Shown piece after piece: positions 4,293 through 60,827 of a DNA stretch of 64,000 nt. Under the pieces are notes generated by a model. The model made no database searches. It saw only the letters and a list, made by a program, of their open reading frames with translations, and was not told the DNA's origin. Position numbers and translations under genes: made by a program. Location: positions 21,055 to 85,054 of IMG/VR virus record IMGVR_UViG_3300028590_000009. One strand, 5' to 3'. Each line of letters opens with the position of its first letter. The first letter of the stretch is position 1. The DNA is from a virus.

Positions 4293-4293
4293 A

Positions 4294-5466
4294 ATGAAGT
4301 CACTCGAAAACGGCAAACTGCTGTCCTGGGCAACCGAGATCGACGAAGCCACGATTAAGCAGGCAACCGCCCTGACCAGGCTCCCGTTCGTGCATCCGCA
4401 CGTAGCATTGATGCCCGACGCCCATGCAGGCAAAGGTTCTAGCGTCGGCACAGTGATTCCGACCGTCGGCGCGGTCATCCCCGCTGCGGTCGGCGTCGAC
4501 ATCGGGTGCGGGATGGTGGCCGTCGAAACGGATATTCGCGACACCGATCTCTTGGGCAAAGATCTCTCGACACTCCGGGAGCGCATCGAACAGGCCATCC
4601 CGCTGTCGCCAGGCAACTACAACTCCAGGATCAACCGCGATTCGGCGCAGGAAAGCATCGACAAGCTTGAGCGAATCGCAGCCATCAACTCGGTGGATCT
4701 CTCGCACTCGCCGAAGTGGCGCGAACAGTTGGGCTCGCTCGGCGGCGGTAACCACTTCATCGAACTCTGCGTGGACAAAGCAGGCTGGGTGTGGCTGTTC
4801 TTGCACTCCGGGTCGCGCGGCGTCGGCAACAAGATCGCTCAGAAGCACATCAAGATCGCGCAGTCGTGGTGCGCTGAGAACGGCATCGAACTGGAAGACA
4901 GAGACCACGCCTACCTGTCCGATGCGACATACGAGTTCCAGGACTACATGTCAGAGCTTCGATGGGCGCAGAAGTTCGCCAGGCTGAACCGAGACGAGAT
5001 GATGGATCGGTTCATGGACGTGTTCGAAGACTGGCTCGGCTGGGCAGTGGTCGCATGCAATCGGATCAATACACACCACAACTACACCGAGCAGGTCGAT
5101 TTCGACAAGACGTCGGTCTGGCTGACGCGCAAGGGCGCAATCGATGCCTCCCTGGGCGTTTGGGGGCTCATCCCCGGTTCAATGGGTACCGGGTCGTATG
5201 TGGTTCAGGGTAAGGGCAATTCGCAGGCGCTGTACTCGGCCCCGCACGGCGCTGGGCGTCGATTCTCTCGCACGCAGGCTCGAAAGACCTTTACCGCCGA
5301 AGATCTCGCGGCGCGCATGACCGGTATCGAGTACCGTCACGGCGAAGAGTGGATTGACGAGATCCCGGACGCATACAAGCCGATCACGGAAGTGATGGAA
5401 GCGTCAGCCGACCTGGTTGAGGTCAAGCATGAGCTTCGTCAGATCTTGAACGTGAAGGGTACCTGA
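4294..5466 (+). CDS. rtcB: RNA-splicing ligase RtcB
   Basis: A 390-residue protein with the family signatures in order: DAHAGKG (42-48), GVDIGCG with the metal-binding Cys72, GGNHF (141-145), HSGSRGVG (161-168), HHNYTEQ (251-257), and APHGAGRRFSR with His308 as the expected guanylylated residue. RtcB joins RNA 2',3'-cyclic phosphate (or 3'-phosphate) ends to 5'-OH ends using GTP and Mn2+, as made when tRNAs are cut by anticodon nucleases or MazF-like toxins. The ATG at 4294 is chosen because it directly follows the previous stop and preserves the normal N-terminus. Last gene of the operon, before a terminator. An RNA-repair counter-defence role is inferred. Confidence 0.95.
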   Translation: MKSLENGKLLSWATEIDEATIKQATALTRLPFVHPHVALMPDAHAGKGSSVGTVIPTVGAVIPAAVGVDIGCGMVAVETDIRDTDLLGKDLSTLRERIEQAIPLSPGNYNSRINRDSAQESIDKLERIAAINSVDLSHSPKWREQLGSLGGGNHFIELCVDKAGWVWLFLHSGSRGVGNKIAQKHIKIAQSWCAENGIELEDRDHAYLSDATYEFQDYMSELRWAQKFARLNRDEMMDRFMDVFEDWLGWAVVACNRINTHHNYTEQVDFDKTSVWLTRKGAIDASLGVWGLIPGSMGTGSYVVQGKGNSQALYSAPHGAGRRFSRTQARKTFTAEDLAARMTGIEYRHGEEWIDEIPDAYKPITEVMEASADLVEVKHELRQILNVKGT

Positions 5467-44687: not shown

Positions 44688-45082
44688 CCGAGATCGACAC
44701 TCTGATCGACGATTTGGCATCCGAGCGTGCCCGTGCCGTCGACAACCTCGACCGCGAAACCATGGTCGTCGGTGCCAGCGAGTTCATCACGCTCTATGAC
44801 GCGCTCGTTGCTGCCCGTGACGAACTCGACCGTGTGGCGCATCTGCATGAGCAGTGGAAAGCGTCCGTCGATGACGACTACGCCCGGATCGCGGCGAAAC
44901 AGTTCCGGGACAAGGCCGCGCAGATCGCTCTTCGTACCGAGATCGAATCCCGCCTCGACCTGTGCAGGAACCCCGCAACCGTGGATGTGAAGACGGGCGA
45001 GTTCAAAAACCCTGACACGGCCGGGTATTCGCGGGCATTGCGGGAAGTGCTGACACTGCTCGACGGGGAGAAGACGGTATGA
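44684..45082 (+). CDS. Hypothetical coiled-coil protein
   Basis: A 132-residue helical protein (ARDELDRVAHLHEQWKASVD, RDKAAQIALRTEIESRLDLC), with a beta-like PATVDVKTGEFKNPDT turn. Overlaps the nucleotidyltransferase start. Unknown. Confidence 0.68.
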   Translation: MTEIDTLIDDLASERARAVDNLDRETMVVGASEFITLYDALVAARDELDRVAHLHEQWKASVDDDYARIAAKQFRDKAAQIALRTEIESRLDLCRNPATVDVKTGEFKNPDTAGYSRALREVLTLLDGEKTV

Positions 45083-46902
45083 GCGTGAACCCGCACAGCA
45101 CCGCGGAATTCGAGCGGATCGCCAAGGACAACACCATCCTCCTCGGCCAAGTCGGCTCGGGCCTGCACGGCGTCACCACGGGCGATGATGATCGCGACGA
45201 AATGGGCGTCTGTCTGGAACCGCCCGCCTACGTCATCGGCAACGCCCAGTTCGAGCAGTACATTTTCCGCACCCAACCCGAAGGTGTCCGTTCTGGCGCA
45301 GGCGATCTCGACCTCAACATCTACAGCCTGCGGAAATGGGCTCGCCTCGCCGCGCAGGGTAACCCGACAATCCTGCTGCTCATGTTCATTCCAGCGGACG
45401 AGCTGGTGATTTGCGACGCGTTCGGCGCCGATCTGCAAGCCCATCCCGAACGGTTCCTGTCGCGCCAAGTAGCGGACAGGTTCGCGGGCTATCTGGTGTC
45501 GCAGCGGGATCAGATGTTGGGGTTGAAGTCGAAGAAGCACACGAATCGGCCCGAATTGGTCGAGCAACATGGGTTTGATTGCTACCTCGATGACACCGAG
45601 TTTCTGACCCGTCGCGGGTGGCTCCTCTACGACCAGATTGACGACGGCGACGAACTCGCCACAATCAACCAGGACACAGGCCAAGTCGAGTTTCAGCGTT
45701 TCATCGAGCGCGTGTCAAAGCCTTACTCGGGGCCGATCCTCACCTGCAAGACGCGCTACAGCGAGTGGGCGGTGACGCCGAATCATCGTATGCGAGTGTC
45801 GAAGATGCGGCGCGGTTCATGCGGCGTGAACCCGCGGGCCTACAACCCTGCGACCGCCGCTTGGGGATTCCGTCCCGCTTCGGATGTGACCCGACTTGAC
45901 TGGTATCAGCAGGTTGTTGCCACGCCTCGGGATGAGGAGATCCCTGTCTCGGATGCGCACTTGGCGTTGATTGGCGCGTTCGTGTCCGAGGGGTCTTTCG
46001 GGAAGCGGCGTAAGGACGGCACTGTCGCCAACTTGCAGATATGCCAGGTGGACGGTGGACGCCTGCACGAGACGATGGTTCTCGCTGCAACGGAGTACGC
46101 GTTCCGGACCTACCGATTCAAGGCGCGTGACGAGACTCGGCGCCCAGGCACGATTTGGACGTTCTCGCATCGTGCGACCGTCGATGAGATCGTGAAGTCG
46201 TGTGGAGATCGCAGCGAGACTCGGCGGCTTCCAGATTGGGCGCTCAACCTCTCGGCTCGCCAGATAGACGTCCTGTTGGATGCGCTGCTCAGTGGCGATG
46301 GCACTCCGCATCGAACGGGAGGCTGGGTCTACTACACCACTTCGTGGGAGTTGGCCGGGCAGGTGCAGGCGATCGCTGTCATGCGTGGGCGTCGCGCGAA
46401 CGTTCGCGGGCCGTACGTGCACGATGGGAACACGGGCATGTATCAGGTGCTCATTCACGATGCTGGCGATACGCCGTTCGCGCCGTTTCGCGGCCGGGAT
46501 GTAAAGAGTGTCGATATCGAAAACCGATCCATTGTTTGCTTCACCGTGCCGAATGAGACCCTGGTAACCCGCCGCAATGGGCATGTTGCGATGCACGGAA
46601 ACACCAAATTCGCTTATCACATGGTTCGGCTCGGCTTGCAAGGCGTCGAAGTGCTCACAACCGGGCGCATCACCCTGCCCATTCCCGAGCCTGATCGGAC
46701 ATGGTTGCGGGAATTGCGGCGCGGCGAGCACACGAAAGAGGAGGCGTTGGCGCGCGCCGATGATCTGCTCGACCAGTTGAATGTGTTGGCGAAGACCGCG
46801 GACCTGCCCGAGCGGCCCGATTATGACGCTATCGACCGCTGGTTGACGACGTTCTATCTGGCGTGGTGGGAAAACACGGGCCTCATGTCCGAGTTCAGGT
46901 AG
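45079..46902 (+). CDS. COG3541-like nucleotidyltransferase interrupted by an intein
   Basis: A 607-residue precursor; the intein covers residues 168-508. Joined exteins give 266 residues with GSGLHG (26-31) and DDDRDEMGV, the GS...D-x-D pattern of COG3541/YcgL-type predicted nucleotidyltransferases, and a C-terminal D-T-K-x-A-Y-H-x-V-R-L rebuilt exactly across the splice junction (EQHGFD + TKFAYHMVRL). Such proteins are common in phages; their substrate (perhaps RNA or protein) is not settled. The insertion lies in the conserved DTKFAYH motif, as inteins tend to. Confidence 0.8.
   Translation: MSVNPHSTAEFERIAKDNTILLGQVGSGLHGVTTGDDDRDEMGVCLEPPAYVIGNAQFEQYIFRTQPEGVRSGAGDLDLNIYSLRKWARLAAQGNPTILLLMFIPADELVICDAFGADLQAHPERFLSRQVADRFAGYLVSQRDQMLGLKSKKHTNRPELVEQHGFDCYLDDTEFLTRRGWLLYDQIDDGDELATINQDTGQVEFQRFIERVSKPYSGPILTCKTRYSEWAVTPNHRMRVSKMRRGSCGVNPRAYNPATAAWGFRPASDVTRLDWYQQVVATPRDEEIPVSDAHLALIGAFVSEGSFGKRRKDGTVANLQICQVDGGRLHETMVLAATEYAFRTYRFKARDETRRPGTIWTFSHRATVDEIVKSCGDRSETRRLPDWALNLSARQIDVLLDALLSGDGTPHRTGGWVYYTTSWELAGQVQAIAVMRGRRANVRGPYVHDGNTGMYQVLIHDAGDTPFAPFRGRDVKSVDIENRSIVCFTVPNETLVTRRNGHVAMHGNTKFAYHMVRLGLQGVEVLTTGRITLPIPEPDRTWLRELRRGEHTKEEALARADDLLDQLNVLAKTADLPERPDYDAIDRWLTTFYLAWWENTGLMSEFR
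45580..46602 (+). mobile_element. Intein with LAGLIDADG-type endonuclease
   Basis: A 341-residue intein inside the nucleotidyltransferase. Starts at Cys168 (CYLDDTEFLTRRG), block B TPNHRMRV, ends ...VAMHGN before Thr. Endonuclease region with LALIGAFVSEGSFG and LLDALLSGDGTPHR as degenerate LAGLIDADG helices. The penultimate residue is Gly with His one earlier (HGN rather than HN), and the +1 residue is Thr. Likely self-splicing and homing-capable. Confidence 0.82.
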
Positions 46903-49906: not shown

Positions 49907-50676
49907 CCGCGTTCGAGGACTGGCAGCCGCAACGGATCGCGATCGCAGGCGATTGGCATGCCAACGTCGAGCACGCCCGGAAAGCCATCCGCTACGCAAA
50001 ACAGCAGGGTGCACAAGCCATCCTGCACGTGGGCGACACCTTCTACGACATGCGCGAGAACTTCGACGGCTCCCCGAACGTCCTCGACAAAGTGAACGAG
50101 GCTCTAGAGGAAGCGGGGCTGCTGTTCGGCTGGGTCGACGGCAACCATGACCGAAACGACTACCTGCAAGAACTCGCCATCGAACACGACTACCAGCCCG
50201 TCCAACTGCGCCCGAACATCTACTACCTCCCGCGCGGATTCCGCTGGACTTGGTGCGGCGTCTCGTTCCTGGCATTGGGTGGCGCCCACTCCGTCGACCG
50301 TCCTTGGCGTACCCCGCATGTCGAATGGTGGCCTGGGGAAACGATCGGCGCGGGGGATGCGTTGCGGGCGTGCGAGGGTGGCCGTGCAGACGTGATGGTG
50401 ACGCACGATGTCCCCGATGGTGTGCGCATCCCGTCCATCGAAGGCAACCCGCTGGGCTTCCCTGAACGCGAACTAGAGGCCGCGGAACGGAATCGGCGGG
50501 TGCTGCGCAGCGTCGTCGACGTTGTGCAGCCTCGGCGACTGTTCGCCGGCCACTACCACACGCGCCTCACTACGGAACTTGTCGGCGTCGACTACAAGAC
50601 CCGCGTGGATGTCCTCGACATGGACGGGCGGGCGATGGGTCAGAACGTCGCCATCGTGGACGTGGTAAGTCTGTAA
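49903..50676 (+). CDS. Calcineurin-like metallophosphoesterase
   Basis: A 257-residue protein with all five metal motifs: GDWHAN (16-21), VGD (43-45), GNHDR (80-84), VTHD (about 168), GHYH (about 216). It should hydrolyse phosphoesters or phosphodiesters using two metal ions; substrate (nucleotides, DNA ends or ligase intermediates) unknown. Last gene before the promoter at 50680. Confidence 0.92.
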   Translation: MTAFEDWQPQRIAIAGDWHANVEHARKAIRYAKQQGAQAILHVGDTFYDMRENFDGSPNVLDKVNEALEEAGLLFGWVDGNHDRNDYLQELAIEHDYQPVQLRPNIYYLPRGFRWTWCGVSFLALGGAHSVDRPWRTPHVEWWPGETIGAGDALRACEGGRADVMVTHDVPDGVRIPSIEGNPLGFPERELEAAERNRRVLRSVVDVVQPRRLFAGHYHTRLTTELVGVDYKTRVDVLDMDGRAMGQNVAIVDVVSL

Positions 50677-50679
50677 ACC

Positions 50680-50705
50680 AGACTTGAGTTCAGTGTGTAA
50701 ACTGG
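50680..50705 (+). promoter_or_regulatory. Tandem RACT operator/promoter, leaderless
   Basis: AGACT (50680) and AAACT (50699) are 19 bp apart; -10 TAAACT (50698-50703). ATG at 50710 follows 6 nt later. Upstream half-site is AGACTTGAGTTCAGTG. Confidence 0.62.
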
Positions 50706-50709
50706 ATTC

Positions 50710-51315
50710 ATGTTCAAATCCCTCTACATCCCGGGCCTCGGCTGGTCGGTTGACGTGCAAACCCACTACCCCGACAGTGGCCCGCGTTGGGGGCATGACC
50801 GTGGCCGCTGCCGTGAACACGTCTGGTGGATGCCGCTCGGGCGTTGGACGCTCACCCTCAACGGGCGCGGCCTGCCCTACTGGAAGCTGGTCGGCTTCGA
50901 GCACAAGCCCTCCGTCGACTGGATGCTCGACGAATACGACTCCAGCTTCAACAGATTCGCCGCCGCATCACTGCGATATCACTTGGACTACTCGGTAGTC
51001 GACAACTCCGAGAACGTCGAACGCCGCGCGCTGTACGAAGACCTCATCAAGCGACTGACCGAACCGCGCCCCCAGTTCACCCGCGAAGAGTTGGACACGC
51101 TGAAGGCCATCGACGCGGCCAGCGAGGAGTCGGGTGTCCCGCTGTTCATCCCGATAGAGCCAGGCAACCCCGACGCGGGCTACCGAATCCGCCCGTCCAC
51201 CGAGCAGGAGGACGCGATCGGCGAAGCTCAGCAGGCGCGAGAAGACGCCTGGTACGAGCGCAACGACCAGGCCCGCCACGACTTCGTGGGCATCATGAGA
51301 CACCTCTGGAGCTGA
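50710..51315 (+). CDS. Hypothetical protein
   Basis: A 201-residue protein starting at a predicted leaderless +1. N-terminus aromatic (GWSVDVQTHYPDSGPRWGHD, WWMPLGRWTLTLNGRGL), then acidic helices and an IRPSTEQEDAIGEAQQARED tail. No family recognised. Confidence 0.7.
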   Translation: MFKSLYIPGLGWSVDVQTHYPDSGPRWGHDRGRCREHVWWMPLGRWTLTLNGRGLPYWKLVGFEHKPSVDWMLDEYDSSFNRFAAASLRYHLDYSVVDNSENVERRALYEDLIKRLTEPRPQFTREELDTLKAIDAASEESGVPLFIPIEPGNPDAGYRIRPSTEQEDAIGEAQQAREDAWYERNDQARHDFVGIMRHLWS

Positions 51316-51316
51316 A

Positions 51317-51919
51317 ATGACACTGGACATTTGGAAGTCGGTCCGCGCCTGGCAGTCTGCCGCCGACGTCACGCAACGCACCGAGCCCGGTTGGGTCGCA
51401 CCCGCCGACATCAACCTCGCCCTACGCCTGATCGTGGAGGAACGCGAAGAACTCGCGACCGCATTGCGTGAACACGACATGATCGGCGTTGCTGACGGTA
51501 TCGCCGACTCGCTTTGGGTGCGCGCGGGGCTCCTGTTGCGTCTCGGACTCGCACGGGACCACATCGACCTCCTCGTGCCCGCACCCGGTAAACCCACGTG
51601 GGAGAACCTGCCACCCGCGGGCATCGAAACCGTCATCGAAGAACTGGAAACCGTCGACCGCGAACTGAAGACGGCTATCCGCGCGGGCAGTCTCGAAGGC
51701 GTCGACATGCTCGGGCATCGCGGCATGTATCAACTGCTGTCGTTGGTGGTGTTGCTGCAACTGCCGTTGGATCGGATCTGGGCCACCGTGGTCGAGTCGA
51801 ACTTCAGCAAGTTCGTGGACGGCAAAGTCGTTCGCCGCGCCGATGGGAAAATCACCAAAGGCCCGAACTTCTCGCCGCCCGACATCGCCAGCATCCTCGC
51901 ACCACCGGAGGCGGCATGA
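51317..51919 (+). CDS. MazG-like nucleotide pyrophosphohydrolase
   Basis: A 200-residue protein: EEREELATALREHDMIGVAD (EExxE) and DGIADSLWVRAGLLLRLGLA (ExxD-like) are helices of the all-alpha NTP-PPase fold; WATVVESNFSKFVDGKVVRR plus KGPNFSPPDI closes it, as in phage MazG-like proteins. Could cleave nucleoside triphosphates, for example to dodge nucleotide-based defence. Metal ligands are placed as expected. Confidence 0.82.
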   Translation: MTLDIWKSVRAWQSAADVTQRTEPGWVAPADINLALRLIVEEREELATALREHDMIGVADGIADSLWVRAGLLLRLGLARDHIDLLVPAPGKPTWENLPPAGIETVIEELETVDRELKTAIRAGSLEGVDMLGHRGMYQLLSLVVLLQLPLDRIWATVVESNFSKFVDGKVVRRADGKITKGPNFSPPDIASILAPPEAA

Positions 51920-52200
51920 ACCGCACACAGTGGGTCGGTGCAGGTGTTTGCGCGTGCGGGAAACGGAACTACCTGTCCCGCAAAGACGCCCGCAAAGTCC
52001 TACGCAACAAATACCCCGGTGAACGCATGCACGTCTACGTCTGCCTGACCGCGGGCGGATTCCACATCGGCCACATGGCACCCGAAGTCGCCTGCGGTGA
52101 AGTGCCGAAAGAACTGTTCTACGGGCCGAAAGGTGTTGGCCGAGTGCGAGAGAAGCAGAAAACCAGGCTGGACCCGAAAACGAGGAGAGTGGCGGCGTGA
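51916..52200 (+). CDS. Hypothetical protein
   Basis: A 94-residue protein: VCACGKRNYLSRKDARKVLR and basic RMHVYVCLTAGGFHIGHMAP; Cys/His present. Ends RRVAA. Recurs in actinophages as an 'YLSRKDARKxLR' protein (family memory). Unknown. Confidence 0.68.
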   Translation: MNRTQWVGAGVCACGKRNYLSRKDARKVLRNKYPGERMHVYVCLTAGGFHIGHMAPEVACGEVPKELFYGPKGVGRVREKQKTRLDPKTRRVAA

Positions 52201-52511
52201 GCACTCTCGCCAAGGTCGAGCACACGTCCTACTTGTGCCCCGCCGCATGGAACGGATGGGACGAGGACGGCAACTACTACCGGTTGAAGTATCGACGCGG
52301 GACGGGCCGAGTATTGCAGGTGCCTCGACTTGGCGGGTTCGCGAAGCTGGTCATCGAATTCAAGTTCGGTGATCCTCGCAACGGGTTTATCGAGCTGGAA
52401 GAGTTCTGTCGGCTCTCGGGCGTGACGCTCGCATTGGCCGAGCCTTACGTGCCGCTGGAGGATCCGAACGCGGGCATCGAGGACTACCCGGAGCCTGACT
52501 GGTCTGCGTGA
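52197..52511 (+). CDS. Hypothetical protein
   Basis: A 104-residue protein from GTG 52197 (overlapped). LCPAAWNGWDEDGNYYRLKY, then FIELEEFCRLSGVTLALAEP. Its end overlaps the convergent HTH gene by 28 bp. Unknown. Confidence 0.68.
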   Translation: MSTLAKVEHTSYLCPAAWNGWDEDGNYYRLKYRRGTGRVLQVPRLGGFAKLVIEFKFGDPRNGFIELEEFCRLSGVTLALAEPYVPLEDPNAGIEDYPEPDWSA

Positions 52512-52750
52512 ACGGCATCATAGGCAGCGTCCGCCATCTTGCCCGCATCAGCGTCGAGAGCTTTGGCGATGCGGCGCAGTTGGTGGACGGTCGGGGATCT
52601 GAGGCCCTGTTCGAGGCGGCTAATCGTATTAGGGACGTAGCCAGTTCGGCGAGCGAGATCGGCTTGCGTGATGTCCTTGCGGGCGCGGGCTGCACGGAGT
52701 TCGCCCGCGAGGGCTTCCCGATAGGCAGCGGTGTCAGCGTCTTCGGTCAT
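52484..52750 (-). CDS. XRE-family HTH regulator
   Basis: An 88-residue protein from ATG 52750: LRAARARKDITQADLARRTG then VPNTISRLEQGLRSPTV is a clear Cro/CI helix-turn-helix. A minus-strand -10 TATAAT (52827-52832) lies 77 nt upstream, with operator-like repeats nearby. Candidate local or late regulator. Confidence 0.85.
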   Translation of the reverse strand: MTEDADTAAYREALAGELRAARARKDITQADLARRTGYVPNTISRLEQGLRSPTVHQLRRIAKALDADAGKMADAAYDAVHADQSGSG

Positions 52751-52804
52751 GGAGTCATTCTGGCTTCCGATTTTCAGATGAGTGACCCATTTCACAATTG
52801 CAAA

Positions 52805-52872
52805 ATTCCAGCAGGTCGGAATGGCAATTATATTGGAAATAGACTAGATAGCGCTAGAGAGTGCTAGACAAT
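52805..52872. promoter_or_regulatory. Operator region of the HTH gene
   Basis: CTAGA occurs three times at exactly 10-bp intervals (52844, 52854, 52864) over the -35 region of the minus-strand promoter; ATTCC-N8-GGAAT (52805-52822) is a dyad just downstream. Helical-phase repeats suggest cooperative binding of the regulator. Confidence 0.5.
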
Positions 52873-53042
52873 CGAGAACTGCCATGGTCTGATGGGGGTG
52901 CGCTAGTTGTGTCCGAAGATCGACCAACTTTCAGCCTCGCGGACATCGCGCCCGGGAATGTGATGTCTAGCTGTAGCCGTAGAGCCTTCCGCCATCCTCA
53001 CGGGTGGGCTGCCCTCTACGGCGCCTGAAGAAATGAAGTAGT

Positions 53043-53108
53043 TCCCCTGAAGCTCGGCGGCAGAGCGCCGCGACGGCGGAGGCCCGGATTCGAGTTCCGG
53101 CAGGGGAG
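53043..53108 (+). tRNA. tRNA-like gene, shortened anticodon arm (Asp-like)
   Basis: Acceptor TCCCCTG/CAGGGGA (7 bp), D arm GCTC..GAGC and T arm CCGGA-TTCGAGT-TCCGG are intact. Between D and T arms only 17 nt remain, where about 23 are expected: the anticodon arm is CCGC-GACG-GCGG with a 4-nt loop. Compared with the usual tRNA-Asp arm, about 6 nt including the anticodon are missing. Either a pseudogene or a tRNA-like RNA without an anticodon. Confidence 0.5.
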
Positions 53109-53142
53109 CGGGACGGGTACGCAGTGTGGTAGCAAGCGCCCA

Positions 53143-53198
53143 TCCAACCTCCTTTGGCGCAGTCGGTGCGCAGAACGGTTCGAGTCCGTCCATTGGAG
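53143..53198 (+). tRNA. tRNA-like gene lacking anticodon arm
   Basis: The T arm (AACGG-TTCGAGT-CCGTC, 4-5 bp) follows directly after a GCGC-AGTCGGT-GCGC D-arm-like hairpin; there is no room for an anticodon arm. The acceptor TCCAA/TTGGA has 5 pairs plus mismatches. Total about 56 nt. Weakly supported, but the consensus T loop is clear. Confidence 0.35.
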
Positions 53199-53255
53199 CG
53201 CGGGCCTCGGGACTCGTTGGGTTAACACCTCCCCCTGAGGACATATGAAAAGGTA

Positions 53256-53326
53256 TCCCTGTTGGCTCAGTGGCTAGAGCAACCCCCGTAAAGGGCTGTA
53301 CCCACGTTCGATTCGTGGACAGGGAG
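53256..53326 (+). tRNA. tRNA with irregular anticodon loop
   Basis: Acceptor TCCCTGT/ACAGGGA, D arm GCTC..GAGC, T arm CCACG-TTCGATT-CGTGG all perfect. The anticodon arm is AACCC-CCGTAAA-GGGCT with one mismatch, one nucleotide short before the stem, and C at position 33; if read normally the anticodon is GTA (Tyr), or a 2-nt deletion from a CTTGTAA-type (Thr) loop. Assignment uncertain. Confidence 0.6.
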
Positions 53327-53859
53327 CAAAGCGCAGCCTAGCTAGTTGCGCTGGTGGTGACAGAGTGTGCGTCTTGCGCGAATCGGGACGCAATGTGTGC
53401 GACTTACGGGATCCTGACGGGCGAGTGCCTGAGGGGAAGCCTTAGCGGGCGGAAACCGATGCCTAGCGGCCGGGTCGTAGCTTCGGGCCTAATCATACTT
53501 ACGATTCATGCCCCGAACGGAGAGCTAGTAACTCTCCCCACCGTCTAACTTGCCGCCTCTTCGCGGAGGGGTTGGAAGTGCCTCAACGGAAAGTCGTCGG
53601 ATGGCGAGGCCGCTGGGGCGCGAAAGTGTTGCAGCGACAAGATCGCTGAGCAGTGAGGTCAAAGCTCACCAGTCCCGTTTGCGGGGCGACTACAGGGCAG
53701 GTGGCCGAACGGAGTTCGCCGTTCGGTGCCTGCCTCACAAGCGGGAGTTTCCGGTGTCTCCCGAAAAAAACTGGCGGCTGACCCTCGACATGGGGAAGGG
53801 TGCGATTTCGCGATAGCGCCTGACGGAGTTGAGCCATCTCCGCTATCAAACGGCTCCAT
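53327..53859. other. Non-coding region with structured elements
   Basis: No gene I can support; a 64-aa frame at 53354-53548 with CASCANRDAMC is the only weak candidate. Visible hairpins: 53519-53537 (GGAGAG, 7-nt loop CTAGTAA), 53653-53669 (GTGAG, 7-nt loop GTCAAAG), and a compound stem at 53696-53734 (GGCAGG plus CCGAACGG arms). The first two resemble isolated anticodon arms. Confidence 0.35.
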
Positions 53860-53935
53860 CGCAGTGTGGCGCAGCTCGGTCTAGCGCAGCGGGCTCATAA
53901 TCCGCAGGTCGTCGGTTCGAATCCGACCACTGCAA
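53860..53935 (+). tRNA. tRNA-Met (CAT), initiator type
   Basis: 76 nt. Acceptor CGCAGTG/CACTGCA pairs 6 bp with a C1-A72 mismatch, the hallmark of initiator tRNA. D arm GCGC with loop AGCTCGGTCTA, anticodon arm GCGGG-CTCATAA-TCCGC (three consecutive G residues at 29-31), T arm GTCGG-TTCGAAT-CCGAC. Anticodon CAT at 53896-53898. Discriminator A; CCA not encoded. Confidence 0.88.
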
Positions 53936-54362
53936 CGAGCGGATAGGGCAACGATCCGTACAAAGGCGGATTTGATCACCGCCAGCAGAAATGCACAGTG
54001 CCCGGAGTTGGCCGAGCTTCGTCAGCAAAACGGCTTCGACTTCACGAGTTGGATAGCGCAACCACGGGCGGAACTGAATCCAGGGCCGCATTGCGCGAGG
54101 TTGGGAACCTTGGAGAGTCGCGAATCTCCTGATCCACCCCCTGGCGGGCACGCGCACTTCGCGGCAGGTATCTGCCGTAAGCCTCTGCCCGTCGCGCAGG
54201 CATACCACCCTCTGCCTCTGGCGGCGGGCTTAACCCTTCGGGGTTTCACGACCGGTTCCGCTCGCTTCGGCAGTCCAGGGCCGGTCCTCTACATGGCCGC
54301 TCGTCCACTCCCGCATCAGGGAGGGGCGGGCGGTTCTCATTCCCACTCTGCCAGGAGTTCTC
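53936..54362. other. Leader/non-coding region before 54363
   Basis: No convincing gene. GGAGA-N8-TCTCC (around 54113) within a CCAGGG/CCCTGG enclosure, and AACCC-TTCG-GGGTT (around 54230) as a short terminator-like hairpin. CCAGGAG just before 54363 is the SD. May hold further structured RNA. Confidence 0.3.
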
Positions 54363-54671
54363 ATGAGCGCGCTGCGCTACCGCAAGAGGCCCGTCGTGAT
54401 CGAGGCCGAGCACCTGTCGAGCCTCAACGGCGATCAGGTCACCGAGTGGATCAGGGCGAACGGTGGTCACGCGCGCCACGTCTACTCCGACCCGATCCGA
54501 CGCGAGATGTTCGACGGTGACTGCCCGAACTGGATCGAGATCGAAACCCTCGAAGGCACGATGACGGCCAACGTGGGCGACTGGATCATTCGTGGCGTCA
54601 AGGGCGAATTTTACCCGTGCCGCAATGACATCTTTGAGGCCACCTACGAGCGCGCCGAGGAGACCGCATGA
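54363..54671 (+). CDS. Conserved phage protein (GDWIIRG...GE.YPC type)
   Basis: A 102-residue protein: RYRKRPVVIEAEHLSSLNGD, NWIEIETLEGTMTANVGDWI, IRGVKGEFYPCRNDIFEATY. The G-x-W-I-I-x-G-x-x-G-E-x-Y-P-C-x-x-D-x-F-x-x-T-Y-E end is widespread in phage proteins of unknown function. CCAGGAG upstream. First gene after the tRNA region. Confidence 0.72.
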   Translation: MSALRYRKRPVVIEAEHLSSLNGDQVTEWIRANGGHARHVYSDPIRREMFDGDCPNWIEIETLEGTMTANVGDWIIRGVKGEFYPCRNDIFEATYERAEETA

Positions 54672-54838
54672 GCGAGAACGAGATCGGCGGCATCGTCCGC
54701 AACACTGCCGACCAGCTCGCGGACGCACTTCATGTGCCCTCGTTCGCCTCCGCCATCGATGCGACGTTGCGCCCGATGTATGCCGACGTCGCAGCCGCAC
54801 ACGAAGCGCACGTGCACTACTCGCCCGTGGTCGATTGA
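54668..54838 (+). CDS. Small hypothetical protein
   Basis: A 56-residue protein (MSENEIGGIVRNTADQLADA start), helical. ATGA overlap. Unknown. Confidence 0.58.
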   Translation: MSENEIGGIVRNTADQLADALHVPSFASAIDATLRPMYADVAAAHEAHVHYSPVVD

Positions 54839-55002
54839 ACCCGCTCCCCGGAACTCTCGCCTGGGCACCGAACGAGCCCGACCCGGTGACGGTCGAACGC
54901 TGCTGGATGTGGCCGTTCCCGTACGCCGAGGTGCGCACATCACGCGACTGGCTGATCACGGTCCCGACAGCACGACTCACATACCTCGACGTTTGGGAGT
55001 GA
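54835..55002 (+). CDS. Small hypothetical protein with TTG start
   Basis: A 55-residue protein starting TTG 54835 in a TTGA overlap. TLAWAPNEPDPVTVERCWMW, PYAEVRTSRDWLITVPTARL. Junction geometry supports the rare start. Unknown. Confidence 0.58.
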   Translation: MNPLPGTLAWAPNEPDPVTVERCWMWPFPYAEVRTSRDWLITVPTARLTYLDVWE

Positions 55003-55139
55003 CCGTGGCGCGAGTGCCGTACGACTGGCGTGCCGAATACGAGGATCCGCCCGACGTTGAGCAACGCGCCTGCCCGAAAGGCGGCCCCGACTGCGGTTGC
55101 CGCCACTACCTGCCCGGTGAAGCCGAATGGCTGACCTGA
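54999..55139 (+). CDS. Very small Cys-rich protein
   Basis: A 46-residue frame from GTG 54999: RVPYDWRAEYEDPPDVEQRA, CPKGGPDCGCRHYLPGE. Three clustered Cys and His; possible metal site. Unknown. Confidence 0.58.
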   Translation: MTVARVPYDWRAEYEDPPDVEQRACPKGGPDCGCRHYLPGEAEWLT

Positions 55140-55276
55140 CCGACGAGCAGGCCGAGACCGCCGCGCACATGCTCCGCGAATTCACCGCCGTGCATCCCGT
55201 CGACGGCCCGAAACTCGCATTCTTCACAGCACTCTTCGCGGCCATCGCGAGAAACCCACCCACACTGCCCGAATGA
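55127..55276 (+). CDS. Very small protein
   Basis: A 49-residue helical frame (MADLTDEQAETAAHMLREFT, KLAFFTALFAAIARNPP). Overlaps the previous gene by 13 nt. Possibly a small structural or scaffolding-associated protein; unknown. Confidence 0.55.
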   Translation: MADLTDEQAETAAHMLREFTAVHPVDGPKLAFFTALFAAIARNPPTLPE

Positions 55277-55288
55277 AAGAAGCACCTC

Positions 55289-55477
55289 ATGGCCGACGCC
55301 GCAAACTCGTACGTTTTCACCATCGCTGGCGAGGCTGGTGAAGTCACCGTCGAAGAACTCGCCGCCGCGATGACAACCGCCCTCAACACTGCCCTGCGCA
55401 CTGTTCCCGCAGGCGGCACCACGGGCCACGTCCTCACCAAGACCTCGGGTGGTTACGCCTGGCAGGCCGCGACATAA
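55289..55477 (+). CDS. Small phage structural-like protein (G.VLTKTS.GYAW end)
   Basis: A 62-residue protein: MADAANSYVFTIAGEAGEVT, TALRTVPAGGTTGHVLTKTS, GGYAWQAAT. The G-G-T-T-G-x-V-L-x-K-x-S motif is typical of phage fibre or decoration proteins. CAGGAG-like AAAGAAGCACCTC upstream. Short length suggests an accessory head or tail protein. Confidence 0.62.
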   Translation: MADAANSYVFTIAGEAGEVTVEELAAAMTTALNTALRTVPAGGTTGHVLTKTSGGYAWQAAT

Positions 55478-55479
55478 CC

Positions 55480-55701
55480 GTGGCTGATCTCGCTGACGGC
55501 GGCCCGCTCCCCGAACAACCGGACGGGCCGCCCGACTTCTGCACTCCCTGCGCGTACTCCGCGCCGCACTTCCACCCAACGATTCCCGGTGCCGACTGGT
55601 TCATCGAGGGTCGACGCTTCCGTGAGGTCGGCCGCATCCCCAACGCGAACGGCGCGACAGTCCACCTCGCAGCCGCCGACACACCGCCCCCATTCCATTA
55701 G
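55480..55701 (+). CDS. Hypothetical protein
   Basis: A 73-residue protein from GTG 55480. FCTPCAYSAPHFHPTIPGAD, WFIEGRRFREVGRIPN. Pro-rich with Cys/His near the N-terminus. Unknown. Confidence 0.62.
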   Translation: MADLADGGPLPEQPDGPPDFCTPCAYSAPHFHPTIPGADWFIEGRRFREVGRIPNANGATVHLAAADTPPPFH

Positions 55702-55709
55702 GAGCCCCG

Positions 55710-56126
55710 TTGAGCCTGAAAATGTACGCCACCGACTTCGTTAACGGCTTCGAGTACATGTTCACGCTCCCCGAAGAGGTCGTCGGCGGCGTCGACACCT
55801 ACTACGCGGGCAGCAAACCCTATCTCGCGGGCCAATACACCGTGGACACCGAAACACTCACCACATACTTCAACCATCCCGCGATCGGCGACCGGTTCCT
55901 CACCCTCGACGACGACACCACCTATGTGCGCGTCACGGGCGGGTCTGCGACGTTCACGGGCGGCACGATCCTGCTGGACCAGTCACGCGAAATCTTCTGG
56001 CCCAACGGTGAAGGCGGTCCCCTCGTCAACTTCCGGGTTGTCGAACCGTCCCCGCCAACCCATCCGCTCGACTGGTTCTTCATCGAGGTCGACCGGGCGC
56101 TCGAAGACTACAACGCAACAAGCTAG
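55710..56126 (+). CDS. Hypothetical beta-rich protein
   Basis: A 138-residue protein starting TTG 55710 (TAGGAGCCCCG SD); ATG 55722 is an alternative. Strand-rich: YMFTLPEEVVGGVDTYYAGS, VRVTGGSATFTGGTILLDQS. May be a small virion or decoration protein. Unknown. Confidence 0.65.
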   Translation: MSLKMYATDFVNGFEYMFTLPEEVVGGVDTYYAGSKPYLAGQYTVDTETLTTYFNHPAIGDRFLTLDDDTTYVRVTGGSATFTGGTILLDQSREIFWPNGEGGPLVNFRVVEPSPPTHPLDWFFIEVDRALEDYNATS

Positions 56127-56310
56127 CCGCCCATACATGCGCGGCGCGACCTCCAACGCGAGGTATCGCAAATTGAGGTAGTCGGTGCCTGCCCAGAGAA
56201 CCCCCACCGAACTTTTCCGCCACACCCTCGTGCCCCATTCGGTCGGGGCCGCCCCACAGGCAGCAGGGGTCTCGTGGCGGGGCCGCTGGCAGCCATGAGC
56301 GCCGCGGCCA

Positions 56311-56353
56311 GGCCCGCGCGGTCGGTATCGCTACCACGGGAGCCGCGCGGGCC
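56311..56353. repeat. 11-bp inverted repeat upstream of the esterase
   Basis: GGCCCGCGCGG and its complement around a 21-nt loop in the 263-bp gap before 56390. No T run follows, so regulatory or leader structure is likely. The rest of the gap (56127-56310) has no gene I can support. Confidence 0.5.
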
Positions 56354-56389
56354 ACAGCTTCCCACAACTTCATAACGCCAGGAGGCGTC

Positions 56390-57310
56390 ATGTCCATCAA
56401 CTCCTGCGCACGAACCGCACTCGTTTGCGTGATCGCGCTCGGCCCACTCGTCTTCGCTTCCGGGCACGCTGTCGCTGACGGCCCCGACTGTCGCCCGTTG
56501 GTGATCGGTGTCGGCGGCAACGGCGAACGCGCCAACACCAACTTCGGGCGCGCAACCATCGTCGGCGACATGCTCGAATACGAAGCCCAACAGGGGAATC
56601 GGGTCGAAGCACTCGACTACAAATCCAGCGTATGGCCTACCGGTCCGTACACGAAGGACGAATCCGTCACCGATGGCCGCGCGCGACTGCAAGCCCGTAT
56701 CGCCGAATACCGCCAAGACTGCCCGAACGGTCACGTCACCGTCATCGGTCACAGCCTGGGCGCCGAATTCGCTGACGAGGCAGACGCCGACCGGGTAGTG
56801 ACGTACGGGGATCCGCGGACTCCTGGCGGCATCTACTCGGCACTTCCGGGCATCGTTCCGGGCATCTCCTCGCCCGGTCCACGCGACCCTGACCCGCGTG
56901 TGACGACCGTGTGCCACGAGTTCGATGCGATCTGCGACAGCCCCGCGCCATGGGCCGATCCTGCCAAGTTCGTTCAGGGATGGGCGGGCTATGCGATGGG
57001 CTGGCATTACTACGCGCCCGACGAAGCCGATGGGCTGCCGCCTGGTGATCACCTTATCGACCGTCCCGCACCTTTGCCGTGGCTGCCCGAATCGACACCG
57101 ACCGGGATTCCGAACGCGCCGACCGCGCCGCTGCCCACATGGGAGCCCGGACCGCTGCCCTCGCTCGAAATGCTCGACCCCGGACCGTATGTGCCGACAC
57201 CGCTGTCCACGTGGATCCCGGACGAGGTTGAAGCGTTCCTGCCGCCCGAGGTGACGGGATTCGTTCCGCCGCCGCTGCCTGCCATCCCCGCGCTTCCATC
57301 GATTGGATGA
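56390..57310 (+). CDS. Secreted alpha/beta-hydrolase (PE-PPE/cutinase-type)
   Basis: A 306-residue protein: signal peptide about 1-29 (ALVCVIALGPLVFASGHAVA), then GVGGNGE...NFGRA, nucleophile elbow GHSLG (120-124, Ser122), a VCHEFDAICD segment (Asp and Cys), GWHYY for a catalytic His, and a Pro-rich C-terminus (about 235-306). Architecture fits PE-PPE-domain or lysin-B-like esterases of mycolic-acid bacteria and their phages, which cut ester links in the cell envelope. Secreted or exported; could act in lysis, host entry or lysogen envelope change. CCAGGAGGCGTC is the SD. Confidence 0.85.
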   Translation: MSINSCARTALVCVIALGPLVFASGHAVADGPDCRPLVIGVGGNGERANTNFGRATIVGDMLEYEAQQGNRVEALDYKSSVWPTGPYTKDESVTDGRARLQARIAEYRQDCPNGHVTVIGHSLGAEFADEADADRVVTYGDPRTPGGIYSALPGIVPGISSPGPRDPDPRVTTVCHEFDAICDSPAPWADPAKFVQGWAGYAMGWHYYAPDEADGLPPGDHLIDRPAPLPWLPESTPTGIPNAPTAPLPTWEPGPLPSLEMLDPGPYVPTPLSTWIPDEVEAFLPPEVTGFVPPPLPAIPALPSIG

Positions 57311-57579
57311 AAATGACCGACAACGGCTCGCTTGGTTGGCTGGAGTATCTTCCCCGCGATTGGGGCTTCTGGGCGCAGATCGACGTCCGGGCGATGGCCG
57401 AATTGACCGATCTCCCGGTCACGGAAGTCTTGGTCATGAGTCGCGAGGACTACACCGACCGACTCAGGGGATTCGACTCCGTAACCTGGTTCACTGCCCG
57501 CGAACTGGTCGCGTCGAAGATCCTCGAAGCCGCGCAATCGGACCTGGCGCAAACGAAGGCGGCCGTGAATGCCGCCTGA
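57307..57579 (+). CDS. Hypothetical protein
   Basis: A 90-residue protein (MKMTDNGSLGWLEYLPRDWG start; MTDNGS at 57313 also possible). FWAQIDVRAMAELTDLPVTE, then a helical end. ATGA overlap with the esterase. Unknown. Confidence 0.65.
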   Translation: MKMTDNGSLGWLEYLPRDWGFWAQIDVRAMAELTDLPVTEVLVMSREDYTDRLRGFDSVTWFTARELVASKILEAAQSDLAQTKAAVNAA

Positions 57580-57823
57580 CGTCACCCTCTATTCCAGCCC
57601 CGGATGTCAGCCCTGCAAGGCAACAGCCCGGAAGCTGACGCAACTCGGCATCGAACACGCCCACATCGACGTCACGCAGGATCCTGCCGCCCTCGACTAC
57701 ATCCGAGGGCTCGGCTACACAGCCGCGCCCGTAGTCGTTGCAGGCGAAGAACATTGGACCGGATTCCGGCTGACTCGGATCGAAGCACTAGCGGCTTCAC
57801 TGCGCACAGCGGTCGACGAATAA
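57569..57823 (+). CDS. Glutaredoxin / NrdH-like thiol protein
   Basis: An 84-residue protein: MPPDVTLYSSPGCQPCKATA has Cys13-x-x-Cys16; the cis-Pro site is TAAPVVV and WTGFRL the C-terminal helix start, as in NrdH or mycoredoxin. It should transfer electrons to ribonucleotide reductase or reduce mixed disulfides, and would support phage DNA precursor supply. Overlaps the previous gene by 11 nt. Confidence 0.9.
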   Translation: MPPDVTLYSSPGCQPCKATARKLTQLGIEHAHIDVTQDPAALDYIRGLGYTAAPVVVAGEEHWTGFRLTRIEALAASLRTAVDE

Positions 57824-57842
57824 CCCCAACATCGGAGGCCCC

Positions 57843-58010
57843 ATGAAATTCCATCTGAAGTTGCTGGGGCTGTTCGAAATCGACATCGAAACCCCTGCCG
57901 TCGAACAGGTTTCATCCATCGACATTGTTTCAGCCTGCCTGAGCGCCATCTCTCAGATCCCCATGTTCCAGACCATGATGATGGTCACGGAGGACGAGGA
58001 CGAGAACTGA
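57843..58010 (+). CDS. Small hypothetical protein
   Basis: A 55-residue protein (MKFHLKLLGLFEIDIETPAV start, then FQTMMMVTEDEDEN). GGAGGCCCC SD-like. Unknown. Confidence 0.6.
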   Translation: MKFHLKLLGLFEIDIETPAVEQVSSIDIVSACLSAISQIPMFQTMMMVTEDEDEN

Positions 58011-58608: not shown

Positions 58609-59118
58609 ATGGCACGCAAAAAGACAATCCCCGTCGAAAAACTGGTAGCGACCCAAGAAAAACGCAACTACTGCCTCGAACGCAGACTCGCCGGCCTCAC
58701 GCAGAAAGAAATCTGCGAAGAAACAGGCTGGGACAAGTCCGCGGTCTCCCGCTACATCAGCACCGCCATCGCCGACATCACCCGCGAAAACGCCACCGAA
58801 TTCCTCGAAGTCGAGCTGGCCCGCCTGGACGCGATGTGGGCAGCCATCTGGGAAGACATCGTCAACCCAGGCGAAGACGACCGCAACGGCCAAACCTGGA
58901 AGATCGACCGCGCACTCGCGATCATGGACCAGCGCGCGAAACTCACCGGCAGCTACAAGACCGCCGAAATGAAAGCCGTCGCCGACGCCCGAGGCAACCT
59001 CAACACTGAAACCTCCTCGATGGTCGGCCGCTTCTTCGACGCCCTCGAAAAGGTGTACGAAGCCGACGGCATCACAGCGGCTACGGAGGCGCCCGAGTCT
59101 GCGGACGACGAACAGTGA
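58609..59118 (+). CDS. Terminase small subunit
   Basis: A 169-residue protein: basic start MARKKTIPVEKLVATQEKRN, HTH ...KEICEETGWDKSAVSRYIST, central helical oligomerisation region, acidic C-terminus. Directly before the large subunit with a 4-nt overlap. It should recognise the packaging site. CGGAGGACGCCC is the SD. Confidence 0.85.
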   Translation: MARKKTIPVEKLVATQEKRNYCLERRLAGLTQKEICEETGWDKSAVSRYISTAIADITRENATEFLEVELARLDAMWAAIWEDIVNPGEDDRNGQTWKIDRALAIMDQRAKLTGSYKTAEMKAVADARGNLNTETSSMVGRFFDALEKVYEADGITAATEAPESADDEQ

Positions 59119-60827
59119 GCCTGCTGGACACACTTCCCCTGTCCCGCAAACAAATCGCTTCCATCGTCGAAGCCCGCCGCGCACGAGTCTCCATACTCTC
59201 CGGCGCGGTGCGATCAGGCAAAACCATCGCCAGCATCCTCGCCTTCTACGACGCGGTACTACGCGCCCCCGAATCCGGGCTCATCATCATCGTCGGCCGA
59301 ACCTTGCAGACGATCGAACGCAACATCATCGAGCCCATGCAAGACCAAGCCGTATTCGGCATATGGTCGAACGAAGTCCACCACACACGCGGATCCTCCA
59401 CCGCGATCATCCTCGGCCGCACCATCCACCTGATCGGCGCCAACGACGTCCGCGCAGAAGGCAAACTCCGCGGCATGACCGCCTGCCTCGCGCTGGTGGA
59501 CGAAGCCACACTGCTCCCAGAAAACTTCTGGACCCAGCTCCTCGCGCGCCTCTCCGTCCCCGGCGCACGCTGCCTGGCAACCACCAACCCCGACAATCCA
59601 GCCCACTTCCTGAAGGTCAACTACATCGACCGACAGCACGAACTGGACTTGCGGGCCTGGTCGTTCATGCTCGACGACAACCCGTCACTCGACCCCGACT
59701 ATGTCGCCGCGATCAAAGCCGAATTCTCCGGACTGTTCTACCTGCGCAACATCAACGGATTGTGGGTCGCCGCCGACGGCGCCGTCTACGACTGCTTCGA
59801 CCCCGACCGCCACGTGGTGCCATGGGGCGAACTGCCCGACCTGCAATGCTATATCGGGATCGCCGTCGACCACGGCACCACCAACCCCACCCATGCGATC
59901 ATGCTCGGTTTAGGTGTCGACAACGTGCTGTATGCGGTCGACGAATGGCGGTATGCGCCCTCGAACAAAGAGGCCCGCAAAACCAACGTCCAACTCTCGC
60001 AAGGCTTACGGGGCTGGATGGCTACCGCCCATCATCCGCGCGAAGACCCGGACAGCCCGCCACGCATCACCTGCCCCGTTATTGTTGACCCTGCCGCCGC
60101 GGACTTCCGAGTCCAGTTGAAGCAGGACGGGCAACGCACGGTACCCGCCTACAACGAAGTGCTGTACGGGATTCGAACCACCTCCGCACTGTTCTCTATC
60201 GAAAAACTGAAGATCAGCGACCGATGCCCTGAACTGTTGAAAGAAATCCCCGGATATGTGTGGGATACGAAAGCGACAGAAGAAGGCAAGGATGCGCCGG
60301 TCAAGGTGAATGACCACGGCTGTTTTGTGGCCGGCACGCTGGTCGAAACCGTCGACGGGCCGCAGCCAATCGAAACGATCGAACCCGGAACGCTGGTGTT
60401 GACCCGGTTCGGGTATCGACCAGTCCTCGACGCTGGATGCACAGGGGTTCACGCTCCACGTGCGCTGCTCCTGGCCGACGGCACCACATTGCTTGGGACT
60501 GCGAATCATCCGGTGTTCGTCGACGGCGAAGGCTTCACGCCGATCGAGGAACTCCACCCCGGCGACGTCATTCAGCAGGCGACTGGTACGAGCGCCGTCG
60601 TCAGTGTCGATTGGGTCAAAGGTCTCGAACCCGTCTACAACCTGACAGTATTCGAACAGCCTGAGTATTACGCGAACGGCGTACTCGTCCACAACTGCGA
60701 CTCGTTGCGCTACTCCATCGCATCGACTGAACGCAAATGGCGGCGTCGTATCAAACTCGCAACCCAATTCCGACCCGAAACGGCGGACGAAGATCCTGGC
60801 TTTACAAAGCAAATAGACTTGAAGTAA
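59115..60827 (+). CDS. Terminase large subunit with intein
   Basis: A 570-residue precursor; 445 residues without the intein. ATPase: Walker A SGAVRSGKT (29-37), Walker B ACLALVDEA (Asp129, Glu130). Nuclease: VDHGTTNPTH (Asp252), later acidic residues. It packages phage DNA and makes the terminal cuts. Intein is at residue 403, splitting NDHG/CDSLRY near the last nuclease motif. GTG start. Confidence 0.92.
   Translation: MSLLDTLPLSRKQIASIVEARRARVSILSGAVRSGKTIASILAFYDAVLRAPESGLIIIVGRTLQTIERNIIEPMQDQAVFGIWSNEVHHTRGSSTAIILGRTIHLIGANDVRAEGKLRGMTACLALVDEATLLPENFWTQLLARLSVPGARCLATTNPDNPAHFLKVNYIDRQHELDLRAWSFMLDDNPSLDPDYVAAIKAEFSGLFYLRNINGLWVAADGAVYDCFDPDRHVVPWGELPDLQCYIGIAVDHGTTNPTHAIMLGLGVDNVLYAVDEWRYAPSNKEARKTNVQLSQGLRGWMATAHHPREDPDSPPRITCPVIVDPAAADFRVQLKQDGQRTVPAYNEVLYGIRTTSALFSIEKLKISDRCPELLKEIPGYVWDTKATEEGKDAPVKVNDHGCFVAGTLVETVDGPQPIETIEPGTLVLTRFGYRPVLDAGCTGVHAPRALLLADGTTLLGTANHPVFVDGEGFTPIEELHPGDVIQQATGTSAVVSVDWVKGLEPVYNLTVFEQPEYYANGVLVHNCDSLRYSIASTERKWRRRIKLATQFRPETADEDPGFTKQIDLK
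60321..60695 (+). mobile_element. Mini-intein in large terminase
   Basis: A 125-residue intein: CFVAGTLVETVDGPQPIETI starts with Cys, then TANHPVFVDGEGF (block B-like THxxH region) and VLVHN before +1 Cys. No homing endonuclease domain. Complete splice signals, so likely active in splicing but immobile. Confidence 0.87.

What the first reader, a model, noticed from the sequence alone, without database searches (positions are those of the whole stretch)
53043..53326. tRNA-like genes with damaged or missing anticodon arms
Three adjacent tRNA-like sequences keep acceptor (two perfectly), D and T arms but have anticodon arms shortened by about 6 nt, absent, or irregular. Independent decay confined to the same arm is unexpected for pseudogenes. 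They may be tRNA mimics or decoys resistant to anticodon nucleases, or targets of an insertion/editing process.
Basis: partly seen in the sequence, partly recalled or inferred. Interest (0 to 1): 0.62.

Follow-up and report, generated by a model that had tools for sequence, protein, structure and literature searches.

The report
Anticodon-less tRNA shells heading a phage RNA
In a family of viruses of Nocardia-type bacteria, a tRNA gene that can no longer read codons, but keeps the parts that tRNA-processing enzymes recognise, sits directly in front of a previously uncatalogued structured RNA, probably so that the cell cuts that RNA free.

Summary
tRNA-like 1 (53043-53108) and tRNA-like 3 (53256-53326) have perfect acceptor, D and T helices but anticodon regions of 17 and 21 nt with no decodable loop. 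tRNA-like 2 (53149-53198) is a poorer remnant without that arm and has no relative. This is not random decay. tRNA-like 3 abuts an uncatalogued structured RNA of ~215 nt ('B', 53327-53542). I found B at 16 distinct loci, mostly Nocardia prophages, and a tRNA or tRNA-like lies flush upstream in 16 of 16. In ten, the upstream element keeps acceptor and T stems through compensatory changes (98% of pairs formed, 9 of 16 pairs doubly changed, 0/500 shuffles), while the anticodon region ranges from 17 to 42 nt and never forms a 7-nt loop with U33. Five relatives carry normal tRNAs there (Asn, Asn, Val, Leu, Leu). tRNA-like 1 shares its C(GACG)G mini-arm with three relatives. Best explanation: a tRNA-B dicistron in which the tRNA was reduced to an RNase P/RNase Z processing shell; processing is inferred, not shown. 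The anticodon-nuclease decoy idea has no support. B matches no Rfam 15 family, including GOLLD, its closest analogue.

The parts
53043..53108 (+). tRNA-like 1: acceptor 53043-53049/53101-53107, D stem 53052-53055/53063-53066, T stem 53084-53088/53096-53100, discriminator G 53108; anticodon region 53067-53083 (17 nt, CCGC-GACG-GCGG)
   Evidence: same arm in L048 4733-4800 (48 nt at 92% identity)
53149..53198 (+). tRNA-like 2: remnant with D arm and imperfect T arm, no anticodon arm, acceptor largely lost
   Evidence: hand parse; no related sequence in relatives; not found by ARAGORN
53195..53251 (+). conserved non-coding block 'A'
   Evidence: 82% identity to L004 4703-4758, 80% to L048 4684-4727, also L006 and L031
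53256..53326 (+). tRNA-like 3: acceptor 53256-53262/53319-53325, D stem 53265-53268/53277-53280, T stem 53302-53306/53314-53318, discriminator G 53326; anticodon region 53281-53301 (21 nt, weak arm, C33)
   Evidence: orthologous position in 15 other loci
53327..53542 (+). structured RNA 'B', starts CAAAGC; closing helix GGTGG/CCACC; three hairpins with T(T/C)AGC-type loops; no long ORF
   Evidence: alignments and covariation; covariance model R1; loops; stops in frames
53629..53735 (+). conserved non-coding block 'C' (GAGCAGTGAGG...CTCACCAGTCC)
   Evidence: 76% identity to L004 4812-4918; also L006, L048, L026; similar sequence read in L070 and L081
53860..53936 (+). normal tRNA-Met (CAT)
   Evidence: ARAGORN; Rfam RF00005 60.6 bits

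Best explanation
Elements 1 and 3 are tRNA-derived shells that no longer decode. Element 3 is the upstream half of a tRNA-ncRNA dicistron: a tRNA(-like) directly followed by the structured RNA B. The likely mechanism is that RNase P and the tRNA 3' endonuclease (RNase Z, or another 3'-processing enzyme) recognise the acceptor/T/D 'elbow', cut on either side of the shell and so create the 5' end of B at CAAAGC. Because these enzymes need the acceptor, T and D/T-loop contacts but not the anticodon arm, the arm was free to shrink (W1, L048, L018, L065), drift (W3, L005, L010, L028) or grow (L007, L081, L083). Several relatives still have a functional-looking tRNA-Asn, Val or Leu at that position. 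The shells keep U1-A72 and mostly G73, as a tRNA-Asn does, which suggests descent from tRNA-Asn. Element 1 is probably an older copy of the same shell, displaced upstream. SHOWN: the anatomy, the flush linkage to B in 16/16 loci, the compensatory changes, and the loss of a decodable loop. INFERRED: transcription, processing, the ancestry, and that B is the functional product.
For: Flush linkage in 16 of 16 distinct B loci, and in L066, L070 and L092 a further tRNA lies flush at the 3' end of B, as for a spacer excised by tRNA processing. In ten shells plus W1: 98.3% of acceptor/D/T pairs form, 9 of 16 pairs change on both sides, 0/500 shuffles reach this, and slid controls fall to 38-53%. The anticodon region of the ten varies from 17 to 42 nt; by an automatic rule a canonical arm (5 bp, 7-nt loop, U33) is present in 5 of 15 B-adjacent elements versus 48 of 60 other tRNAs of the same loci (Fisher p = 0.0009), and most of the 12 'others' that fail are parsing misses. 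Upstream tRNA identity varies (Asn, Asn, Val, Leu, Leu, shells), so decoding identity is not what is kept. B is a real structured RNA: 25 of 40 pairs with double changes, 98.9% of cells paired, 0/500. [quoted passage not shown]
Against: No expression or cleavage data. No sigma-70-type promoter or intrinsic terminator was found nearby (weak test for actinobacteria). Element 1 in the window is not next to B, and element 2 has no explanation beyond decay. The conserved C(GACG)G mini-arm in four elements suggests the arm may itself be selected, which pure dispensability does not predict. L070 is ambiguous (the automatic rule calls it canonical). The loci are related phages, so 16/16 is not 16 independent events; the fold energies of single shells are unremarkable (z -1.1 to -2.4).
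Confidence: 0.58

Rival explanations
1. The shell stays attached to B and is a structural domain of one chimeric RNA, a tRNA mimic that docks on tRNA-binding machinery (RNase P, EF-Tu, ribosome) or shields the 5' end, comparable to the 5' tRNA-like parts of herpesvirus TMERs or the tRNAs held in the GOLLD linker.
For: The elbow elements (D-loop GG, T-loop TTCRANT) are kept in every shell; the same C(GACG)G mini-arm recurs in W1, L048, L018 and L065 with changed stems; tRNAs can sit covalently in GOLLD (PMC12286853).
Against: Unrelated full tRNAs (Asn, Val, Leu) occupy the same slot in relatives, and those would be expected to be cut free; no pairing between shell and B was looked for systematically or noticed.
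Confidence: 0.2
2. Ordinary tRNA pseudogenes in a prophage tRNA cluster; acceptor and T arms survive by chance or recency.
For: Element 2, and by eye a remnant at L010 ~5090-5140, look like plain decay; the tRNA clusters are visibly in flux.
Against: Compensatory changes in acceptor and T stems across ten shells; flush position before B in all loci; shared mini-arm across divergent phages.
Confidence: 0.12
3. One reading: decoys or tRNA mimics resistant to (or titrating) anticodon nucleases of host defence.
For: The anticodon loop, the usual nuclease target, is exactly what is missing; the window's phage encodes RtcB (4264-5466) and a RlaP-family protein (45079-46902).
Against: RtcB is in 0 and RlaP in 4 of 15 related records; some records are fragments. 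Arms also expand to 39-42 nt. A molecule without the loop cannot compete for a loop-binding nuclease. The linkage to B is unexplained.
Confidence: 0.04
4. An aminoacylatable tRNA-like domain, in the manner of tmRNA, that works without an anticodon arm.
For: tmRNA shows that an alanylated tRNA domain needs no anticodon arm (general knowledge).
Against: The alanine determinant G3-U70 is absent in all shells: the third pair is C-G in nine and U-A in two. The element has no tag reading frame; CCA is not encoded.
Confidence: 0.03

Closest known systems
GOLLD RNA (Rfam RF02032) in phage and mycobacterial tRNA arrays
   Same: Structured RNA of unknown function in phage/prophage tRNA islands, next to or containing a tRNA; a pseudo-tRNA inside GOLLD is reported in a mycobacterium of the M. 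mucogenicum clade (PMC6582537); tRNAs sit in the GOLLD linker (PMC12286853).
   Different: No GOLLD match in the window even at E<=10 and none in 152 Nocardia genomes, although 8 of 401 genomes of the family do match; B's model finds nothing significant in those GOLLD loci (best E 0.19). B is shorter, the tRNA lies outside its 5' end, and the anticodon arm is lost.
ROOL RNA
   Same: Large structured RNA of phages and prophages, often near tRNA islands (PMC12286853).
   Different: No match in the Rfam scan; much larger than B.
MHV68 TMERs (tRNA-miRNA-encoded RNAs)
   Same: Viral RNA with a 5' tRNA-like structure followed by functional hairpins (PMC8223928).
   Different: Animal herpesvirus, pol III transcription; no sequence relation; here the downstream RNA is one conserved multi-helix structure.
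tRNA 3' spacer RNAs such as 3'ETS-leuZ, and plant tRNA-snoRNA dicistrons (general knowledge)
   Same: An RNA whose 5' end is made by tRNA 3' processing.
   Different: Those tRNAs stay functional; here the tRNA is often reduced to a non-decoding shell.
tmRNA tRNA-like domain (general knowledge)
   Same: tRNA domain without an anticodon arm.
   Different: No G3-U70, no split acceptor, no tag frame; the D arm is intact here.

Membership tests
functional (decoding) tRNA | 7-bp acceptor, D and T arms with normal loops | tested here: met
   elements 1 and 3; element 2 not met
functional (decoding) tRNA | 5-bp anticodon stem, 7-nt loop, U33 | tested here: not met
   W3 has C33 and a 4/5 stem, W1 a 4-nt loop
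functional (decoding) tRNA | aminoacylation and CCA end | not testable with these tools
   needs RNA from lysogens
GOLLD RNA (RF02032) | match to the Rfam covariance model | tested here: not met
   (E<=10, none); reverse test; GOLLD found elsewhere in the family
GOLLD RNA (RF02032) | located in a phage tRNA island | tested here: met
tRNA-ncRNA dicistron processed by tRNA enzymes | tRNA(-like) directly abutting the ncRNA | tested here: met
   16/16 loci
tRNA-ncRNA dicistron processed by tRNA enzymes | cleavage by RNase P / RNase Z at the junction | not testable with these tools
   inferred from anatomy
tmRNA | alanine acceptor G3-U70 | tested here: not met
   C-G in 9, U-A in 2
anticodon-nuclease decoy/repair system | co-occurrence with RNA repair genes across relatives | tested here: not met
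   (RtcB 0/15, RlaP 4/15); some records are fragments

The most novel reading that the evidence does not exclude
A new family of phage structured RNA (B), always headed by a tRNA or by a tRNA reduced to its elbow, in which the phage keeps the tRNA fold purely as an RNA-maturation or docking device. The conserved C(GACG)G mini-arm would make it a distinct, selected class of anticodon-less tRNA-like element.
Probability: 0.4. Interest if true: 0.78.

Novelty: new variant of a known kind. Interest (0 to 1): 0.6.

Why it matters
Why phages carry tRNAs and why large structured RNAs cluster with them is an open question. Here the decoding part of the tRNA is dispensable and the processing part is not, which separates 'tRNA for translation' from 'tRNA as RNA-processing signal' and makes the second role directly testable. 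It also adds a covariation-supported RNA absent from Rfam 15, and warns that tRNA finders mislabel such shells (here as tRNA-Tyr, elsewhere as Ser or Ile).

Tried and rejected
Rfam at relaxed E-value: nothing beyond tRNA-Met except chance hits. blastn of 50000-57900 against INPHARED phages: only matches elsewhere in the stretch, mostly near 54.5 kb, plus one unannotated record at the tRNA-Met, among the rows listed. INPHARED with the shell plus B of L028: one 35-nt match only. With the tRNA plus B of L069: only the tRNA part matches other phages' tRNA genes in the rows listed. With B of L092 alone: none. Plasmids: one real match, a Nocardia farcinica replicon at 88%. L017, L019 and L020, fetched by an 18-nt motif, are chance matches (R1 at most 11.5 bits or absent). 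B in wider draws: 7 of 152 genomes of the Nocardia genus, 2 of 401 in the family, and only the query genome in the order and class draws. Link to RNA repair: rejected. GOLLD identity: rejected. tmRNA-like alanylation: no G3-U70. Coding potential of B: stops in all three plus-strand frames, few in one, and indels in the alignment. A resemblance of block C to the RNase P specificity domain (GTGGGGTAAGAGCCCACCAGT) is recalled from memory only; Rfam does not support it.

Full report
WHAT THE WINDOW IS. The window is bases 21055-85054 of an 85-kb virus record, 63% G+C. Its terminase (59115-60827), portal, exonuclease and RecT-like genes mark a tailed phage. Its nearest relatives are prophages of Nocardia (N. 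xishanensis, N. flavorosea, N. niwae, N. aurea, N. ignorata, Nocardia sp. CC227C; 73-79% terminase identity). The finding lies in a ~1.4-kb largely non-coding stretch upstream of the terminase (no ORF of 80 aa or more covers B), where relatives carry tRNA clusters.

THE OBSERVATION. Elements 1 and 3 are as described: perfect acceptor, D and T helices with 17 and 21 nt instead of about 23 between D and T arms. Element 1 folds with a 4-bp, 4-nt-loop mini-arm CCGC-GACG-GCGG. Element 3 has a weak arm with C at position 33. Element 2 has no anticodon arm at all, but also a broken acceptor and no relative. The tool call 'tRNA-Tyr' for element 3 should not be trusted. A strict structural scan finds just these two in the window; 20 shuffles give 5 weaker hits in total.

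WHAT THE RELATIVES SHOW. blastn of the region against the relatives found that element 3 is followed by a conserved non-coding block, 53327 to about 53554 (77-80% identity to L005 and L007; 93% to L048). Eight sequences gave a consensus fold and a covariance model R1. R1 and two further motif scans of IMG/VR, plus a scan of 152 Nocardia genomes, gave 16 distinct loci. On 16 sequences, 25 of 40 predicted pairs show changes on both sides, 98.9% of cells are paired, and no shuffle in 500 reaches the covariation score (the structure was derived from the same alignment, so the slid controls are flattering). B has a closing helix GGTGG/CCACC, an almost invariant GCTGGTGGTGACAGAG stretch, and up to three hairpins with the loop T(T/C)AGC(G). 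It matches no Rfam 15 family even at E 10.

THE LINK. In all 16 loci the acceptor stem of a tRNA or tRNA-like ends exactly at B's first bases, a discriminator base followed by CAAAGC. In five it is a normal-looking tRNA: Asn(GTT) in L066 and L069, Val(TAC) in L092, Leu(CAA) in L031 and L067. In ten it is a shell. The middle regions are: 21 nt (window), 17 (L048), 21 (L005), 26 (L007), 20 (L028), 18 (L018), 22 (L010), 18 (L065), 39 (L081) and 42 (L083). None has a 7-nt loop with U33 on an acceptable stem. L070 (20 nt) is ambiguous. By the automatic rule 5 of 15 B-adjacent elements have a canonical arm against 48 of 60 other tRNAs in the same loci (p = 0.0009; L092 was found later and is not in this count). 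Most of the 12 failures among the others are Ser/Leu/Tyr/Lys/Met genes misparsed at the D arm, so the contrast is understated; relatedness makes the p-value only indicative. In L066, L070 and L092, B is also followed flush by another tRNA, so there B is simply the spacer between two tRNAs.

SELECTION ON THE SHELL. Across ten shells and W1 the acceptor stem has five and the T stem four pairs with compensatory changes; 98.3% of cells are paired; 0/500 shuffles reach this, and sliding the partners drops pairing to 38-53%. T loops keep TTCRANT and D loops keep GG. So everything needed for the tRNA elbow is maintained while the decoding arm is not. The mini-arm C(GACG)G recurs in W1, L048, L018 and L065 with changed stems (CCGC/GCGG, CCGC/GCGG, TCCC/GGGA, CCGA/TCGG), so the short arm is itself long-lived, which leaves room for a function of its own.

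HISTORY (inferred). The shells keep U1-A72 and mostly discriminator G73, as a tRNA-Asn does, and two loci do have a full tRNA-Asn before B, so descent from a tRNA-Asn-B unit is likely. In L031 and L067 a tRNA-Leu sits between an older shell-like element and B, showing that the slot can be refilled. In the window, element 1 resembles the L048 shell (92% over 48 nt) but is separated from B by element 2, block A and element 3; it is probably a displaced older shell.

MECHANISM (inferred). [quoted passage not shown] by general knowledge RNase Z reads acceptor and T arm. Neither needs the anticodon arm. A tRNA in front of B therefore creates B's 5' end, and when decoding by that tRNA stopped mattering only the processing elements stayed under selection. 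The main rival is that the shell stays attached as a domain of B. Aminoacylation in the tmRNA manner is unlikely (no G3-U70). The nuclease-decoy idea has no comparative support.

WHAT IS KNOWN. GOLLD and ROOL are large RNAs of unknown function near phage tRNA islands; GOLLD can hold a tRNA in its linker (PMC12286853), and a mycobacterial GOLLD contains a pseudo-tRNA (PMC6582537). Two GOLLD-region tRNAs that I could parse in L084 have normal anticodon arms. TMERs of a herpesvirus join a 5' tRNA-like structure to functional hairpins (PMC8223928). I found no paper describing B or anticodon-less tRNA shells in phages in the searches made; the library lacks most subscription journals, so novelty is provisional.

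VERDICT. A real, conserved feature: non-decoding tRNA shells heading an uncatalogued structured phage RNA. The function of B is not established; the processing role of the shell is the best-supported inference.

Noticed in passing
window 53629-53735; L004 4812-4918; L006 5913-5967; L026 5294-5340: Conserved non-coding block C (GAGCAGTGRGG..YCACCAGTCC) recalls the RNase P specificity-domain sequence but matches no Rfam family; in L004 and L006 it lies close to block A without B between them, so tRNA-B looks like a cassette inserted between A and C.
   Followed up: partly
L003 5472-5529 and L010 4797-4854; L028 ~3978-4045; window ~53560-53620: Further conserved short spacer RNAs in these tRNA clusters (CCGGCGACRGGGAGTCGTCGGGGCARCAGGGGC..., and a GGAAGTG...GGACGG..GGCGAG.. 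element in several loci).
   Followed up: no
L006 6077-6113; similar hairpins by eye in L003, L004, L028: A hairpin at the end of the tRNA cluster reaches the Rfam abiF RNA threshold (37.7 vs 37 bits); a possible phage-borne copy or mimic of that RNA.
   Followed up: no
window 4264-5466 and 45079-46902: RtcB RNA ligase and a RlaP-family nucleotidyltransferase in one phage; RlaP occurs in some relatives, RtcB in none of those searched.
   Followed up: partly
window 45079-46902: The RlaP match comes in two separated pieces (also in L002's record) and phrog_85 (thymidylate synthase) matches residues 164-241 in between, which suggests an insertion (intein-like or homing) in the gene.
   Followed up: no
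L009 5206-5346: An acceptor/T-arm pair with 96 nt in place of the anticodon arm in a more distant relative.
   Followed up: no
plasmid collection NZ_LN868939.1 2612215-2612434: B is present and unannotated in a Nocardia farcinica replicon (88% identity).
   Followed up: no
L084: A mycobacterial-family GOLLD locus also contains GGTTTAGCGGCC, the loop sequence of B's hairpins; could be chance.
   Followed up: no
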